DNA from: Bacillota bacterium
Lineage (GTDB): Bacteria; Bacillota; Sulfobacillia; Sulfobacillales; Sulfobacillaceae
Direction: 5' to 3'
DNA length: 41,403 bases
Assembly (NCBI GenBank): GCA_021784595.1
Contig: JAJYHT010000023.1
Coordinates: forward strand, 1-41,403
Position numbers and translations under genes: made by a program. Of the stretch, positions 25,559 through 31,068 are shown piece after piece. Within the stretch, counting starts at the first letter, position 1; each line of letters opens with the position of its first letter. The notes beneath the pieces were generated by a model. That model saw only the letters and a program-made list of their open reading frames with translations. It made no database searches and was not told the DNA's origin.

Positions 25559-25933
25559 TTACGTCAGCCGTCGAAAAGTTCTATCACGGTAACAACCAAA
25601 CACAAATGGGCGGGGTGTCTCATGAAATAATTTCTCCATTTGGTCCAAGGTGCATGTGATGATTTGAAGGTATTCCCACCGAGTGGGGGTTTGTGTTTGT
25701 GCTAGTACAAACGCACCTACCTTAGCCTGACGAATCATTTCTAATTCGTTCGGCCGTTTACGAATATAGCTATCCCGAGTGATGACTATCCATTGTTTTT
25801 GACCGGCTGTTTCGAGCCATATCACATCGGGGGTGTTAGCGGGAAAGTAATCGTCTAACCAAATGATGTCGATGCGTACACACTTCAAAGCCTCGGCAAT
25901 AGATACTGGAATGCTACGATCGATAAAAATCAT
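25559..25933 (-). CDS. Putative PIN-like toxin (VapC-like/DUF5615 type)
   Basis: The 124-residue protein begins 'MIFIDRSIPVSIAEALK' and has 'IDIIWLDDYFPANTPDVIWLE', 'QWIVITRDSYIRKRPNELEMI' and 'VGAFVLAQ'. The acidic residues spaced along these strands (D5; D-D in the middle; 'TRD') match a compact PIN-like nuclease fold of the kind paired with DUF433 proteins. Members are thought to be RNA-cleaving toxins; activity here is inference. The ATG overlaps the stop of the upstream antitoxin by 4 bases (ATGA), the standard toxin-antitoxin coupling. It is one of the few intact genes in the accessory region. Confidence 0.7.
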   Translation of the reverse strand: MIFIDRSIPVSIAEALKCVRIDIIWLDDYFPANTPDVIWLETAGQKQWIVITRDSYIRKRPNELEMIRQAKVGAFVLAQTQTPTRWEYLQIITCTLDQMEKLFHETPRPFVFGCYRDRTFRRLT

Positions 25934-26580
25934 GCAGAGTCCTGTAACTCAAACCGAAGAGCGGCTTCTACCGAGATCGGCTCAAGGCGAAAATCCTTGG
26001 CAATCACGTCAATGGGATCGTTGGCCACATAACGCTCGCGGATGATTTCGGTCCGCACTCCGCTGCCGGCGATGACGGGAAATCCATATCCAAAGTGGGG
26101 GGATACCTGAATGTAGCCGCCGTGGCCTCGTGGCCACCAGGTAGATGCTAAATCCTGTGTATAGTCCAGATCCTCAAGGAAAGGCGCCAACACCTCGAGC
26201 CAAACGGTTTGTCCGCGTTGCCGTCCCACTTCAATGAGCCGATCTTCGGCTTCGACGAAAATTTCTTTTCCTCCCACGCGAAATTGGGCCGAGACCAGAG
26301 GACGTTCCAGTTTTAGCAGCTGTTGGGTGTACTGAACGATTTGCCGAATCAAGAGCAGAGGGAACCCTCGCTGTTTAAGTTTGCCGATAGCAATAACTTC
26401 CACTAGATCCAGAAAGCTCGCCGCATGGGAAGGGGTAGACGGGGCCGATATCGCCGGGTATTGCCCATATCCCAGTAGCCAACGCTTGGCAGTACCCCGG
26501 GAAACTCGGGCGAGCCGGTCGACGTCGGAAAACGTATAAAGCGGCCGATGCAAGGCAACTTCGGTAGTTGTGGACTCCAC
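25930..26580 (-). CDS. DUF433-domain antitoxin with N-terminal HTH
   Basis: The protein has 217 residues from a GTG start at 26580, with GGGAGGAGG 7 bases upstream. The N terminus has a MerR-like winged helix 'YTFSDVDRLARVSRGTAKRW' (about residues 13-32). The middle reads 'SFLDLVEVIAIGKLKQRG' and 'LLLIRQIVQYTQQLL', and the C terminus is a DUF433 domain, 'GSGVRTEIIRERYVANDPI' followed by 'VIAKDFRLEPISVEAALRFE'. DUF433 proteins pair with PIN-like toxins, and the 4-base overlap with the downstream gene fits. The frame is open further upstream to 26760, but that part lacks a ribosome-binding site and looks spurious. A -10-like TAAAAT (minus strand, ~26613-26618) may be its promoter. Confidence 0.75.
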   Translation of the reverse strand: MESTTTEVALHRPLYTFSDVDRLARVSRGTAKRWLLGYGQYPAISAPSTPSHAASFLDLVEVIAIGKLKQRGFPLLLIRQIVQYTQQLLKLERPLVSAQFRVGGKEIFVEAEDRLIEVGRQRGQTVWLEVLAPFLEDLDYTQDLASTWWPRGHGGYIQVSPHFGYGFPVIAGSGVRTEIIRERYVANDPIDVIAKDFRLEPISVEAALRFELQDSA

Positions 26581-26783
26581 GCGGCTTCCTCCTCCCTCTC
26601 TGAAACTACAACTTATTTTAGCACGATGGATGAATACACGACCGGCTATCGCTTCTTTTACGGCGCGGATGCAGCAATCAACCGAAACCCGGGTTTCGGC
26701 ATCTTTTCGTCCGCGTCCCGCGAGGGCATCGAGAAAAGAGGAGGGTGTCGGATGGGCCACCTCTCATCCCCCTGTGATGCCTT

Positions 26784-27263
26784 CTGGGCCAACGCGAATT
26801 AGAACGGCGCAGTACATTTGTCCTCATCACCACCGTCCCCGCCGACCACCTGTCGGCCGCTGCCTTGCTTGCCGAATATAAAGGACAAGTGCATGTGGAA
26901 CGCCACTTTCACTTCGTGAAAGACCCGCTCTTCGTGGACGCGCTTTTTGTGAAGAAGCCCGAACGCGTGGAAGCCTTGGGCTACGCGCTCCTGTTGGCAT
27001 GTCTGCTGTACAGTCTCTTAGAGCGCCGTTTGCGGCAGTCCGGGGTACCCTTGCCCTCACCCTCGCGTCGAGTGCTTCATCGGCCAACGGGCCACGAAGT
27101 GGTGCGCCATCTCCAAAGTCTGCAAGTGGTGCGGTCGGACGAAGGCCAGCGGACGATTGCGTTAGCGACCATTCTCCAACCGACCTTGGTGGCGATCTTA
27201 GAGGGGCTGCACATGTCCCCCGCGGTATTTACGGATCCTTCGAAGCGCGAACCGCCAGACTAA
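26784..27263 (+). pseudogene. IS1634-type transposase, C-terminal remnant
   Basis: About 160 codons in one frame read 'LERRSTFVLITTVPADHLSA', 'LLAEYKGQVHVERHFHFVKD' and 'PLFVDALFVKKPERVEALGY', then 'LLACLLYSLLERRLRQ'. This is the C-terminal third of an IS1634/DUF4277-type DDE transposase, with the conserved Y-K-(G)-Q...E-R..F-.F-.KDPLF block carrying the last catalytic Glu. The N-terminal two thirds are missing: an in-frame TGA at 26775-26777 closes the frame and the DNA before it belongs to the toxin-antitoxin upstream region. It is not functional. Confidence 0.85.
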
Positions 27264-27602: not shown

Positions 27603-28055
27603 ATGTTTGGACACTGGACCGAGACCGATAACGCGCAATGGACTGCTTGTGCCGTAGGCGTAGATGCTCTTTATACGGAATGGGTAGTTCAGGCATTGGA
27701 GGTTGCCCAACAGGAACCGGCCATCCTGACCACGCTCCCTCCCGGCACTGAGGTCTCCACCTGGTTGCGCGATCACCTCGAACAGCATCGTGGCGCCTTT
27801 TGCGGTTCTCCCCTCGATCCTGAAGTGCGGGAGGCGGCACGACGGGTGGGGTTTGCCCATATTACGGCCCATGTGCTACCCTCATGGTATATCAGCCTCT
27901 ACAACTTAATGTTTGCCGCTTACCATGCGTTGGAATCCGGTCCAACGCCTCCGCATCTCCCGCCGCTAGCCGTTCTTCGACGATGGTGGCTGGCCGACAT
28001 GGAGGTTGAAGCTGCTTGCTGTCAATCTATGATGATCTTAGATAATATGTTATAA
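27603..28055 (+). pseudogene. Globin-coupled sensor, N-terminal half (cut by IS607 insertion)
   Basis: The 150-residue frame is a sensor globin domain, the haem/O2-sensing head of globin-coupled diguanylate cyclases. Diagnostic is the F-helix region 'RRVGFAHITAHVLPSWYISLY': aligning the LPxxWY block to the family places the proximal His at H86. The stretch 'VREAARRVG' precedes it and an amphipathic helix 'VLRRWWLADMEVEAACCQSMM' follows. After about residue 144 the sequence becomes AT-rich ('ILDNML' stop), the presumed left end of the IS607-type element. The missing output domain is at about 30522-31068. An in-frame splice after CQSMM onto 'VTLDTYAVAV' gives a normal-looking linker. Confidence 0.8.
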
Positions 28056-28075
28056 TAAAACTAGGTGATTGTATT

Positions 28076-28727
28076 ATGGATGAGCAGTTTGTCAGCATCG
28101 GCAAGGCGGCCAAGATGCTCGGCATGAGCATCGACGGACTCCGGAAGTGGGAACGCGAAGGGCGCCTGATTCCGGTGTGTACCGTGACGAATCATCGGCG
28201 CTATCGGGTCGCGGACTTACGCGCCCTGATGCACGAGGATGTGCCTGATGTTGCGAGGGATACGCGTTGTCTCCTCGTATGCCCGAGTCTCGACCAAAAA
28301 ACAACAAGAGGCGGGGCACTGGGATCGTCAACTCGGGCGGTTAACGGCATTCGCTGCGGAGCAGCGATGGACTGTGGTGGCTGCTCTGGCCGATGTCGCG
28401 AGCGGCTTGAATGAAAAACGGCGGGGTCTCCATCGGTTGCTGGATCGTGCTCAGCAACACCAAGCGGGCATCGTGGCTGGGGAGTACCAGGATCGATTGG
28501 CACGTTTCGGGTTTACTTATCTGGAAAGTTACCTGCACGCCTTTGGCGTGCGTGTTGTCGTCATGGAGCACACGGTGAAAGACGATCAGCAGGAACTCAT
28601 GGAGGACTTGATTGCCATTACCACGTCGTTCTCGGCCCGCATTTATGGCAAACGCGGAGGGAAAAAGATGGGTGCGACCGTGCGTCAAGCGATGGCGACC
28701 TTAGCTCCGGAAGGAGTCCCGGAATGA
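28076..28727 (+). pseudogene. tnpA: IS607-type TnpA serine recombinase, split in two frames
   Basis: Frame 1 from ATG 28076 encodes the N-terminal MerR-like HTH 'FVSIGKAAKMLGMSIDGLRK' plus 'NHRRYRVADLRALM', and would run on to a stop at 28414. The catalytic domain lies in the +1 frame: 'SSYARVSTKKQQEAGHWDRQ' (catalytic Ser in RVS), 'GEYQDRLARFGFTYLESYL' and 'DLIAITTSFSARIYGKRGGK', ending at 28727. Normally these are one protein of about 200 residues. The second frame has its own ATGs at 28239 and 28248, so either one base was lost near 28250 or the two domains are made separately. All catalytic-domain motifs are intact. Its 3' end overlaps tnpB by 4 bases. Confidence 0.85.
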
Positions 28728-30244
28728 AAACCACGATTTTTGGCGTGTTGCTGGATGTCACACCCGAACAAGATACGATCCTGCGCCGTCTTATGCGCAA
28801 ATACGGCTGGATGCTCCGGTTTGCGTTCAATCGTTTACTCAAGAGTCTGCCCAACATGGGAGCCTTGGAGCGCCATCTAGCCAGTGACACGGAGTTGCCG
28901 CTGCGTTACGCCAAAGATGCCGTGCAGGAAGCGCAAGACCTCATCCGCGCCCGCCATCAAGCCATGCAAGACGGTCTGAAGCTGTGGACGCAACGCGTGA
29001 AAAAAACCCGCGAACGGTTGACTGCCCTCCGGGCATCCTCGCATCCGAATGCCCGCCGCATCGCGGGACAAGAACGGAAACTCGCGCATCAAGCAGCGTG
29101 CCTCGCGTTTTATCAACAGCATGTCGAGGCGGGCACCTTTCCTCCCGTGGTATTTGGCACCAAAAAACGGTGGGGGGATCGGTTCAAGACGCTCGACGAC
29201 CCCCTCGCCGAACAGAAACGTCAGCAAGCGTGGCGGGAAGTATGGGACGAGCGCCGCAATGGTCGGTTGTCCGCTCGGGGAGATCGCACGAAAAAAGGCA
29301 ATCCCCTCCTGCGCGTCAGCGAAGGGCCTAACCACTGGATGTTAGACATCTCCCTCGATGTCCTCAAACCAGGCAAACCCAACGCCAAAGCCCCGCGGTA
29401 TGCAAAACTGGCCATCCCCCTCTACATTGCCCGCAAGGTCTCCAAGAAAACCGGCCAAGTCAAGGGCCGTGATTATGAGGGGCTTCTGCGGCGGGTGCTC
29501 GCCTCCGGCGACCCCTATCAGGTGGAAATCCTGCGGCGACACGGACGCTATCAGGTGCGCATCACCGTCGAAGAAGTCCCTGCGCCCATACAGACCGATC
29601 CTCGTCATGGCTGGGTAGGCGTCGATACCAACAGCACTTTTTTAGCGCTCTGTCACGTCTTGCCGGACGGCAATGCCTGCGCCTTTGCGACGATGGGAGA
29701 TCCGCGTCTCTTTGATGTCCGATCAACCCAACGCGACGCGTTGGTCGGACGCCTCGCGGTCGAGACCGTGCAGTGGGCCAAGGATCGGGGGGGCGGCCTC
29801 GTCATCGAAGACTTGCAGTTCATCCATGATCGGGATGTGAGCGCCAAGTTTAACCGCGTGACGCACCAGTTTAATTACCGGGCTTTGCTGACGGCGGTCG
29901 AACGACAGGCTGCGCGGGAAGGCGTCGCCTTGCGGAAAGTCAAACCGGCATATACCTCGATTATCGGGCGGTTCAAATATCAACCGCAGTATGGCATTAG
30001 TGTCCATCATGCGGCAGCGTTGGTCATTGGCCGCCGGGGCGGCCTCAAAGTCTGGCGGGAGAACGTTCCCAAAGACCTACGGCAGTGGATGCAAGCGCAA
30101 GATCAGTGGAATGACGCGACCTATCGTAAAACTGACTGGAGCGCATGGAATCGACTCAACCGGGCTCTCACTGCCGCCCTGAAAAAACGACAGCAGTATT
30201 TGACTGCATGGCTAGGGTATCGCAAGAGATTATTGACGGAATGA
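28724..30244 (+). CDS. tnpB: TnpB family protein (RuvC-like, IS607-associated, long form)
   Basis: The 506-residue protein belongs to the large TnpB-related group. It starts 'MKTTIFGVLLDVTPEQDTIL' with the helical N-terminal region. RuvC-I is 'GWVGVDTNSTFLAL' (Asp of GVD, about residue 301) and RuvC-II is 'GGGLVIEDLQF' (Glu). The C-terminal region reads 'VKPAYTSIIGRFKYQPQYGI' then 'SVHHAAALVIGRRGG'. Canonical TnpBs have a four-cysteine zinc ribbon between PAYTS and RuvC-III, and an Asp in a DxNAA-like motif; here there are no cysteines and the position reads S-V-H-H-A-A-A. TnpBs are RNA-guided nucleases that help transposon maintenance; whether this form cuts DNA is open. The frame is intact and the start overlaps tnpA (ATGA). 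Confidence 0.88.
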   Translation: MKTTIFGVLLDVTPEQDTILRRLMRKYGWMLRFAFNRLLKSLPNMGALERHLASDTELPLRYAKDAVQEAQDLIRARHQAMQDGLKLWTQRVKKTRERLTALRASSHPNARRIAGQERKLAHQAACLAFYQQHVEAGTFPPVVFGTKKRWGDRFKTLDDPLAEQKRQQAWREVWDERRNGRLSARGDRTKKGNPLLRVSEGPNHWMLDISLDVLKPGKPNAKAPRYAKLAIPLYIARKVSKKTGQVKGRDYEGLLRRVLASGDPYQVEILRRHGRYQVRITVEEVPAPIQTDPRHGWVGVDTNSTFLALCHVLPDGNACAFATMGDPRLFDVRSTQRDALVGRLAVETVQWAKDRGGGLVIEDLQFIHDRDVSAKFNRVTHQFNYRALLTAVERQAAREGVALRKVKPAYTSIIGRFKYQPQYGISVHHAAALVIGRRGGLKVWRENVPKDLRQWMQAQDQWNDATYRKTDWSAWNRLNRALTAALKKRQQYLTAWLGYRKRLLTE

Positions 30245-30249
30245 CTATC

Positions 30250-30525
30250 GTCTGATTCTCCCCGTTGCCACCACGTGGCGAAAGGAGCAACGGGGCATCT
30301 TGATGAGGGCCCAGTAACACTGGGGCTCAGGGCACCACCGACGGGACACCAATGGGAGGTTCCTACCATCCTTCTCCTGCCGGGATCTTGAGCGGTGCGT
30401 GGGGGAACAACATCTCTACGCGATGGGGCGGAAGCCACCCCCGAGCCGGCGAATCCTGTGAGGACGGCGGGTCTCATCCGAGATCGGGAAAACCAAACGA
30501 GATTATCATAGGTTTTTCTAACCAG
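30250..30525 (+). ncRNA. Candidate omega RNA (guide scaffold) at the IS607 right end
   Basis: The bases after the tnpB stop are non-coding in character and strongly structured. CCCCGTTGC (30260-30268) pairs with GCAACGGGG (30287-30295), with an alternative inner hairpin GCCAC-CAC-GTGGC (30267-30279). GAGGGCCCAGT (30305-30315) pairs, with a bulge, with ACTGGGGCTC (30319-30328). More GC-rich inverted repeats follow to about 30490. TnpB guide RNAs come from exactly this position, with the guide read from flanking host DNA past the right end; here that would be the start of the GGDEF remnant (GTCACTCTCGACACC...). Expression is not shown. Confidence 0.6.
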
Positions 30526-31068
30526 GTCACTCTCGACACCTACGCCGTTGCGGTCACGACCCAAGTGACTGATTTAAGCAATCTGGCGCTCACTGATCCT
30601 TTGACCGGGTTATTCAATCGTCGAGGCTTCTGGCAACGTGTGACGTACGATATTGATCACGGAGTCCACCACGCGGCGTTCCTGTTATTAGACCTAGACC
30701 ACTTCAAAGCGGTCAACGATCTGCATGGGCATCCCGTCGGGGATCAAGTCCTCCAACAATTAGCGGCACCCGAGCAAGCCTCTGCGAGGCCCAGCGATGC
30801 CATGGCACGTCTCGGCGGGGATGAATTTGCCTGGTGGGTGGTCGGCATGATGGATGCGAGGGCACTTCATCGACGCCTGCAGGGGATCTCGGACGATCTT
30901 CGACACCATCAAGGGCTGACCTTTTCCGTCGGTGCGGCATGGTATCCTGAAAGCGGCTGCGATGTCGAACAGTTATATCAACGTGCGGATGAGGCGCTGT
31001 ATCAGGCGAAACGCGGAGGTCGCGAGGGCTTGACCATTGCGGGACAAAGCCAGATCTATCGGTTGTAG
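30522..31068 (+). pseudogene. Diguanylate cyclase (GGDEF) domain, C-terminal half of the split globin sensor
   Basis: The frame is 'VTLDTYAVAVTTQVTDLSNL' (signalling helix), then 'ALTDPLTGLFNRRGFWQRVT', 'FLLLDLDHFKAVNDLHGHPV' (metal/GTP site) and the active-site signature 'ARLGGDEFAW'. The inhibitory I-site RxxD is present as RPSD exactly five residues before GGDEF. The end reads 'YQRADEALYQAKRGGREGL'. An intact domain makes cyclic di-GMP. The frame stays open back to ATG 30352 through the IS607 right end, so a chimeric protein could be made, but the natural start is in the globin gene at 27603. The catalytic residues themselves are intact. Confidence 0.85.

What the first reader, a model, noticed from the sequence alone, without database searches (positions are those of the whole stretch)
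27603..31068. A globin-coupled diguanylate cyclase split by an IS607-type element
A sensor globin (proximal His86, LPSWY block) stops at 28055, and a GGDEF domain with intact RPSD I-site and GGDEF signature resumes at about 30522, with tnpA-tnpB between. Joining after 'CQSMM' to 'VTLDTYAVAV' keeps the frame and gives a normal linker. Oxygen sensing would have been cut off from cyclic-di-GMP output, yet both halves retain intact domain sequences and the GGDEF half has an open chimeric frame. It implies recent insertion or continued use of the parts.
Basis: partly seen in the sequence, partly recalled or inferred. Interest (0 to 1): 0.75.

Follow-up and report, generated by a model that had tools for sequence, protein, structure and literature searches.

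The report
Mobile element splits a globin-cyclase gene
A common type of bacterial jumping gene (IS607) has landed inside a single gas-sensor/second-messenger gene in this Sulfobacillus-like bacterium and very probably broken it; the insertion is real, but this is an ordinary kind of event.

Summary
One gene for a compact globin-coupled diguanylate cyclase is cut by a complete 2,521-bp IS607-family element (28006-30526). Sixteen related proteins, two from the same genus, are uninterrupted globin-GGDEF fusions. The window's flanks, joined at the element's ends, align at 93% and 90% with the two same-genus genes, without a gap at the junction. Copies in other genomes share exactly the same ends, at a GG core after a GGAGG-type flank that matches the published TAM of IS607 TnpBs.

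Three details of the finding are wrong. The true junction is ADMEV|TLDTY, not after CQSMM: the last 15 codons of the 'globin' ORF belong to the element. The element's tnpA carries a one-base frameshift. The 'chimeric GGDEF frame' runs through the element's structured right-end (guide-RNA-like) region and lacks a ribosome-binding site.

Mechanism: simple insertional inactivation, precisely reversible in principle. Nothing shows continued use of the parts. The insertion may be fairly recent: the GGDEF half is well conserved, while the globin half has lost an Arg invariant in all 16 relatives. Oxygen sensing is plausible but unproven: the heme His is invariant, but the usual distal Tyr is absent. 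Interest is low to modest.

The parts
27603..28005 (+). 5' part of the interrupted gene: sensor-globin domain, codons 1-134 (proximal His86, PSWY block)
   Evidence: Pfam Protoglobin; 91% and 86% aa identity to intact genes in L009 and L010; profile of 15 homologues hits HemAT, PDB 1or4, E 5.8e-5
28004..28005 (+). GG core at the left junction; left flank TGGAGG
   Evidence: empty-site alignment; 17 distinct left flanks, 15 of them ending GGAGG
28006..30526 (+). complete IS607-family element, 2,521 bp
   Evidence: ends coincide with copies in other genomes (L027, L028, L029, L030, L050)
28006..28055 (+). element left end; supplies the last 15 codons and the stop of the 'globin' ORF
28076..28727 (+). 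tnpA (MerR-type HTH + serine recombinase) broken by one extra base near 28277 into 112-aa and 162-aa frames
28724..30244 (+). tnpB, 506 aa; RuvC Asp (GVD) and Glu (IED) present, canonical third Asp and zinc ribbon absent
30245..30526 (+). element right end: structured noncoding region (putative reRNA/omega-RNA scaffold) ending AACCAGG
   Evidence: alignment; consensus fold with 12 pairs changed on both sides in at least one sequence
30527..30546 (+). sequence that would be the guide of the element's reRNA (start of the GGDEF part of the host gene)
   Evidence: inference from position next to the right end and published IS607 TnpB work
30352..31068 (+). chimeric ORF, element right end + GGDEF; no good ribosome-binding site
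30527..31068 (+). 3' part of the interrupted gene: linker + GGDEF domain with RPSD I-site and GGDEF motif

Best explanation
An IS607-family element (MerR/serine-recombinase TnpA plus TnpB) inserted at the GG of ...GACATGGAGGTC... in a gene for a compact globin-coupled diguanylate cyclase, the only one of its kind found in this genome. Shown: the intact gene in relatives, the exact element ends, the GG exchange without target duplication, and an in-frame stop supplied by the element 50 bp past the left junction. Inferred: the cell makes at most a globin fragment with a short foreign tail; the GGDEF half is not translated, or only poorly; the sensor function is lost. Inferred: the element's reRNA would carry the host-gene sequence as guide, so that TnpB, if active, would bind or cut a chromosome that has lost the element. 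Excision by an IS607 transposase would restore the gene exactly, but this copy's tnpA is frameshifted and would need a transposase from elsewhere in the genome.
For: Uninterrupted fused ORFs in relatives, including two of the same genus. Joined flanks align at 93% (980 bp) and 90% (966 bp), the only gap being 2 bp upstream of the ATG. Identical element ends in many genomes. Left flank GGAGG in 15 of 17 distinct sites, in line with the TAM 5'-AGGAG measured for IS607 TnpBs of 18 of 22 strains (PMC11061315). GG target and no duplication are established for IS607 (PMC6188088). No other globin of this type in the genome. No Shine-Dalgarno before in-frame starts of the GGDEF part. Globin half: R128, invariant in the 16 other aligned proteins, is W here.
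Against: Loss of function is not shown by expression data. The GGDEF half shows purifying selection on the window's branch (2 nonsynonymous, 9 synonymous; p 8e-5 against neutrality), but that branch includes time before the insertion. The genome is a 101-contig draft, so allele frequency and small sequence errors (for example the extra tnpA base) cannot be checked.
Confidence: 0.9

Rival explanations
1. The parts are still used: the globin fragment acts alone and a chimeric GGDEF protein starting in the element's right end makes c-di-GMP without control by the globin.
For: The chimeric frame is open from ATG 30352; GGDEF catalytic and I-site motifs are intact; few amino-acid changes in the GGDEF half on this branch.
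Against: No ribosome-binding site at any in-frame start. The upstream part is a conserved structured noncoding region, not a sequence selected for this frame. A published cyclase domain alone was monomeric and inactive (EcGReg 297-460, PMC5549716). Pro at position 216 is seen in no relative.
Confidence: 0.05
2. Reversible switch: precise excision restores the sensor gene in part of the population.
For: IS607 exchange at a 2-bp GG core leaves no scar, and the proposed pathway reseals the donor (PMC4058570). Related copies elsewhere in the genome have intact tnpA frames of 216 and 236 aa (L013, L014).
Against: This copy's tnpA is frameshifted. The only complete related left end read in the same genome (L014) is diverged. 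R128W in the globin half suggests weak constraint on the gene in this genome. TnpB, if active, would act against the empty allele. No read data.
Confidence: 0.06
3. Assembly artefact joining two contigs at a repeat.
For: The genome is a draft in 101 contigs, and related element fragments end at contig borders in several genomes.
Against: Both junctions are exact, at a GG core, with the two halves of one gene on either side in the right order. No other piece of this element found in the genome is closer than 85% identity, so it is not a collapse-prone repeat.
Confidence: 0.02
4. Globin and GGDEF genes are naturally separate and the element lies between them.
For: Only the appearance of the window.
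Against: Fused single ORFs in the relatives, with continuous alignment through the junction.
Confidence: 0.005

Closest known systems
IS607 family (IS607, ISC1904; active TnpBs such as ISFba1)
   Same: MerR-HTH + serine recombinase TnpA (NCBIfam transpos_IS607), TnpB downstream, no target duplication, GG core, AG-rich left flank like the published AGGAG TAM, structured right end next to the guide position
   Different: tnpA frameshifted in this copy; TnpB is 506 aa (ISFba1 387 aa) and lacks the canonical third RuvC Asp and the zinc ribbon in all 11 copies read; no Rfam match for its right-end RNA
Globin-coupled diguanylate cyclases (EcDosC/EcGReg, BpeGReg)
   Same: N-terminal sensor globin with proximal His, C-terminal GGDEF with I-site
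   Different: about 314-323 aa instead of 460-475: no room for the middle domain between globin and GGDEF; the globin is remote (best PDB hit HemAT, E 5.8e-5) and lacks Tyr at the aligned B10 position; interrupted here
HemAT sensor globin (PDB 1or4)
   Same: H86 aligns with the HemAT histidine in IHLRIGLLPKWY
   Different: HemAT is a chemotaxis transducer; no Tyr at the position aligned with HemAT residue 70

Membership tests
IS607 family | TnpA with N-terminal MerR-type HTH and serine-recombinase catalytic domain | tested here: met
   both parts present but in different frames in this copy, one 216-aa frame in other copies
IS607 family | GG core and no target-site duplication | tested here: met
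   empty site and ends
IS607 family | No terminal inverted repeats | not tested
   none seen by eye; no repeat search run
IS607 family | Intact TnpA frame in this copy | tested here: not met
   +1 frameshift near 28277; sequence error not excluded
RNA-guided TnpB nuclease | RuvC D-E-D triad and zinc ribbon | tested here: not met
   D and E conserved, no acid at the canonical third position and no CxxC ribbon in 11 copies; an alternative acid elsewhere is not excluded
RNA-guided TnpB nuclease | TAM-like left flank and structured right-end RNA | tested here: met
Globin-coupled diguanylate cyclase | Globin domain with proximal His fused to GGDEF | tested here: met
   in the intact relatives; in the window the fusion is broken
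Globin-coupled diguanylate cyclase | Middle domain between globin and GGDEF | tested here: not met
   intact proteins are mostly 311-350 aa with GGDEF starting at about residue 153-155; model of the linker is of low confidence
Globin-coupled diguanylate cyclase | Distal B10 Tyr | tested here: not met
   profile alignment places position 32, a non-Tyr residue, opposite HemAT 70 and GcHK 45; alignment is remote
Globin-coupled diguanylate cyclase | Heme and O2 binding, O2-controlled c-di-GMP synthesis | not testable with these tools
   needs purified protein

The most novel reading that the evidence does not exclude
The element's TnpB, which lacks the canonical third catalytic acid in all copies read, uses the host-gene guide to silence or hold the sensor gene rather than cut it, so that the split state is enforced and only a transposase supplied in trans can restore the gene: an RNA-guided on/off control of a globin-coupled cyclase.
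Probability: 0.04. Interest if true: 0.65.

Novelty: new member of a known kind. Interest (0 to 1): 0.22.

Why it matters
It is a clean example, with empty-site evidence, of an IS607 element inactivating a predicted gas-sensing c-di-GMP gene. It also defines the exact ends and the GGAGG-type target flank of an IS607 lineage spread through this bacterial family, and exposes a compact globin-GGDEF family that keeps the heme histidine but lacks the middle domain and, by a remote alignment, the distal tyrosine. None of this overturns what is known.

Tried and rejected
AlphaFold2 on the intact relative with three sequences gave a usable GGDEF but a poor globin (residues 69-154 under pLDDT 50), and the Foldseek rows shown were all GGDEF proteins, so the model is not used as evidence for the globin fold; the profile search is. 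Rfam gave no match to the right end (one sub-threshold chance hit in tnpB). A PDB search with TnpB found nothing useful. Plasmids hold no relative of the globin. Selection on the two halves differs in direction but not significantly (Fisher p 0.16), so no claim of relaxed constraint is made from counts alone. Whether this IS lineage inserts preferentially between Shine-Dalgarno and start codon was looked at and left open: only some right flanks begin with a start codon and a long frame.

Full report
What is there. The window is contig C13 of a 3.8-Mb draft genome. That the organism is Sulfobacillus-like is my judgement from the relatives (Bacillota MAGs), not a tool result. The ORF 27603-28055 encodes a protoglobin-type domain, 30527-31068 a GGDEF domain, and IS607-type tnpA and tnpB lie between them.

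The gene was one gene. A scan of public genomes with the globin found three relatives, L009, L010 and L011, each with one uninterrupted ORF carrying globin and GGDEF. In the same taxonomic family 18 of 34 genomes, the window's own included, have a match to the globin; 16 related proteins, L011 included, were aligned over both halves. Joining the window's flanks at the element ends gives a sequence that aligns with L009 over 980 bases at 93% and with L010 over 966 bases at 90%; the only gap is 2 bases in front of the start codon, none at the junction.

Exact borders. Copies of the element in other genomes (for example L027, L028, L029, L030, L050) match the window from base 28006 to base 30526. 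Left ends read GG|TT(G/T)AAGCTGCTTGC, right ends ...TAACCAGG|. The gene therefore continues ADMEV|TLDTY.

Target. Of 17 distinct left flanks 15 end in GGAGG. This fits IS607: insertion at GG without duplication (PMC6188088) and a TAM of AGGAG for most active IS607 TnpBs (PMC11061315). The window's flank is TGGAGG. ISFba1 TnpB lost activity with any single TAM change, so whether this empty site would be recognised is uncertain.

The element. tnpA carries one extra base near 28277 against all other copies read there and is split into two frames; most other copies have one 216-aa frame. TnpB is a full 506-aa frame. RuvC Asp301 and Glu362 are conserved, but the canonical third Asp and the zinc ribbon are absent in all 11 copies. 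It is therefore not filed as a proven nuclease. The right end is strongly conserved and folds with 12 pairs changed on both sides in at least one of five sequences, as expected of a right-end guide RNA; the guide would be the host gene from 30527.

What the insertion does. An in-frame stop follows 50 bases past the left junction. The GGDEF half is open from ATG 30352 through the right end, but none of its in-frame starts has a recognisable ribosome-binding site. In EcGReg the cyclase domain alone is inactive, and truncated proteins fail in vivo (PMC5549716). Loss of function is the likely result; this is inference, not measured.

Age and constraint. On the window's branch since the split from L009 the globin half has 5 nonsynonymous and 4 synonymous changes, the GGDEF half 2 and 9; the GGDEF half is significantly constrained (p 8e-5), the globin half not (p 0.15), and the two do not differ significantly (p 0.16). 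R128, invariant in 16 relatives, is W in the window. Since the branch includes time before the insertion, this is compatible with a fairly recent insertion and does not require continued use.

Is it an oxygen sensor? The heme histidine is invariant in all 17 sequences and aligns with that of HemAT; a profile of the family finds HemAT at E 5.8e-5 and GcHK at 0.82. All 15 members tested match Pfam Protoglobin. The distal Tyr position is not Tyr in this remote alignment, and the middle domain of known globin-coupled cyclases is absent. Gas or redox sensing is plausible; oxygen specifically is not shown.

Verdict. A real, cleanly documented, but ordinary insertional inactivation by a known family of mobile element.

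Noticed in passing
window 28724-30244; L027, L028, L030-L034, L037, L050, L053: TnpB of this IS607 lineage lacks the canonical third RuvC Asp and the zinc ribbon in all copies read (SVHHAAALVIGRRG block), with Asp and Glu kept; either an alternative acid or a non-cutting guide protein.
   Followed up: partly
left flanks of 17 element copies, for example L027, L028, L044, L088, L090: Nine of 17 left flanks end AGGAGG or AGGAGA, like a Shine-Dalgarno sequence; several right flanks have ATG 6-11 bases on with a long frame (L030, L032, L034, L051), so some copies may sit between ribosome-binding site and start codon.
   Followed up: partly
L010:4719-4769 (minus strand): A left-end remnant of the same element family lies about 230 bases upstream of the intact globin-GGDEF gene in a relative, so the locus seems to have been hit twice independently.
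   Followed up: no
L028: In this copy tnpA and tnpB read as one 721-aa frame.
   Followed up: no
window 26865-27263: ORF next to the gene that resembles the end of an IS1634-type transposase (own knowledge; no Pfam match).
   Followed up: no
window 25930-26760 (minus): 276-aa ORF with a DUF433 match over the cut-off.
   Followed up: no
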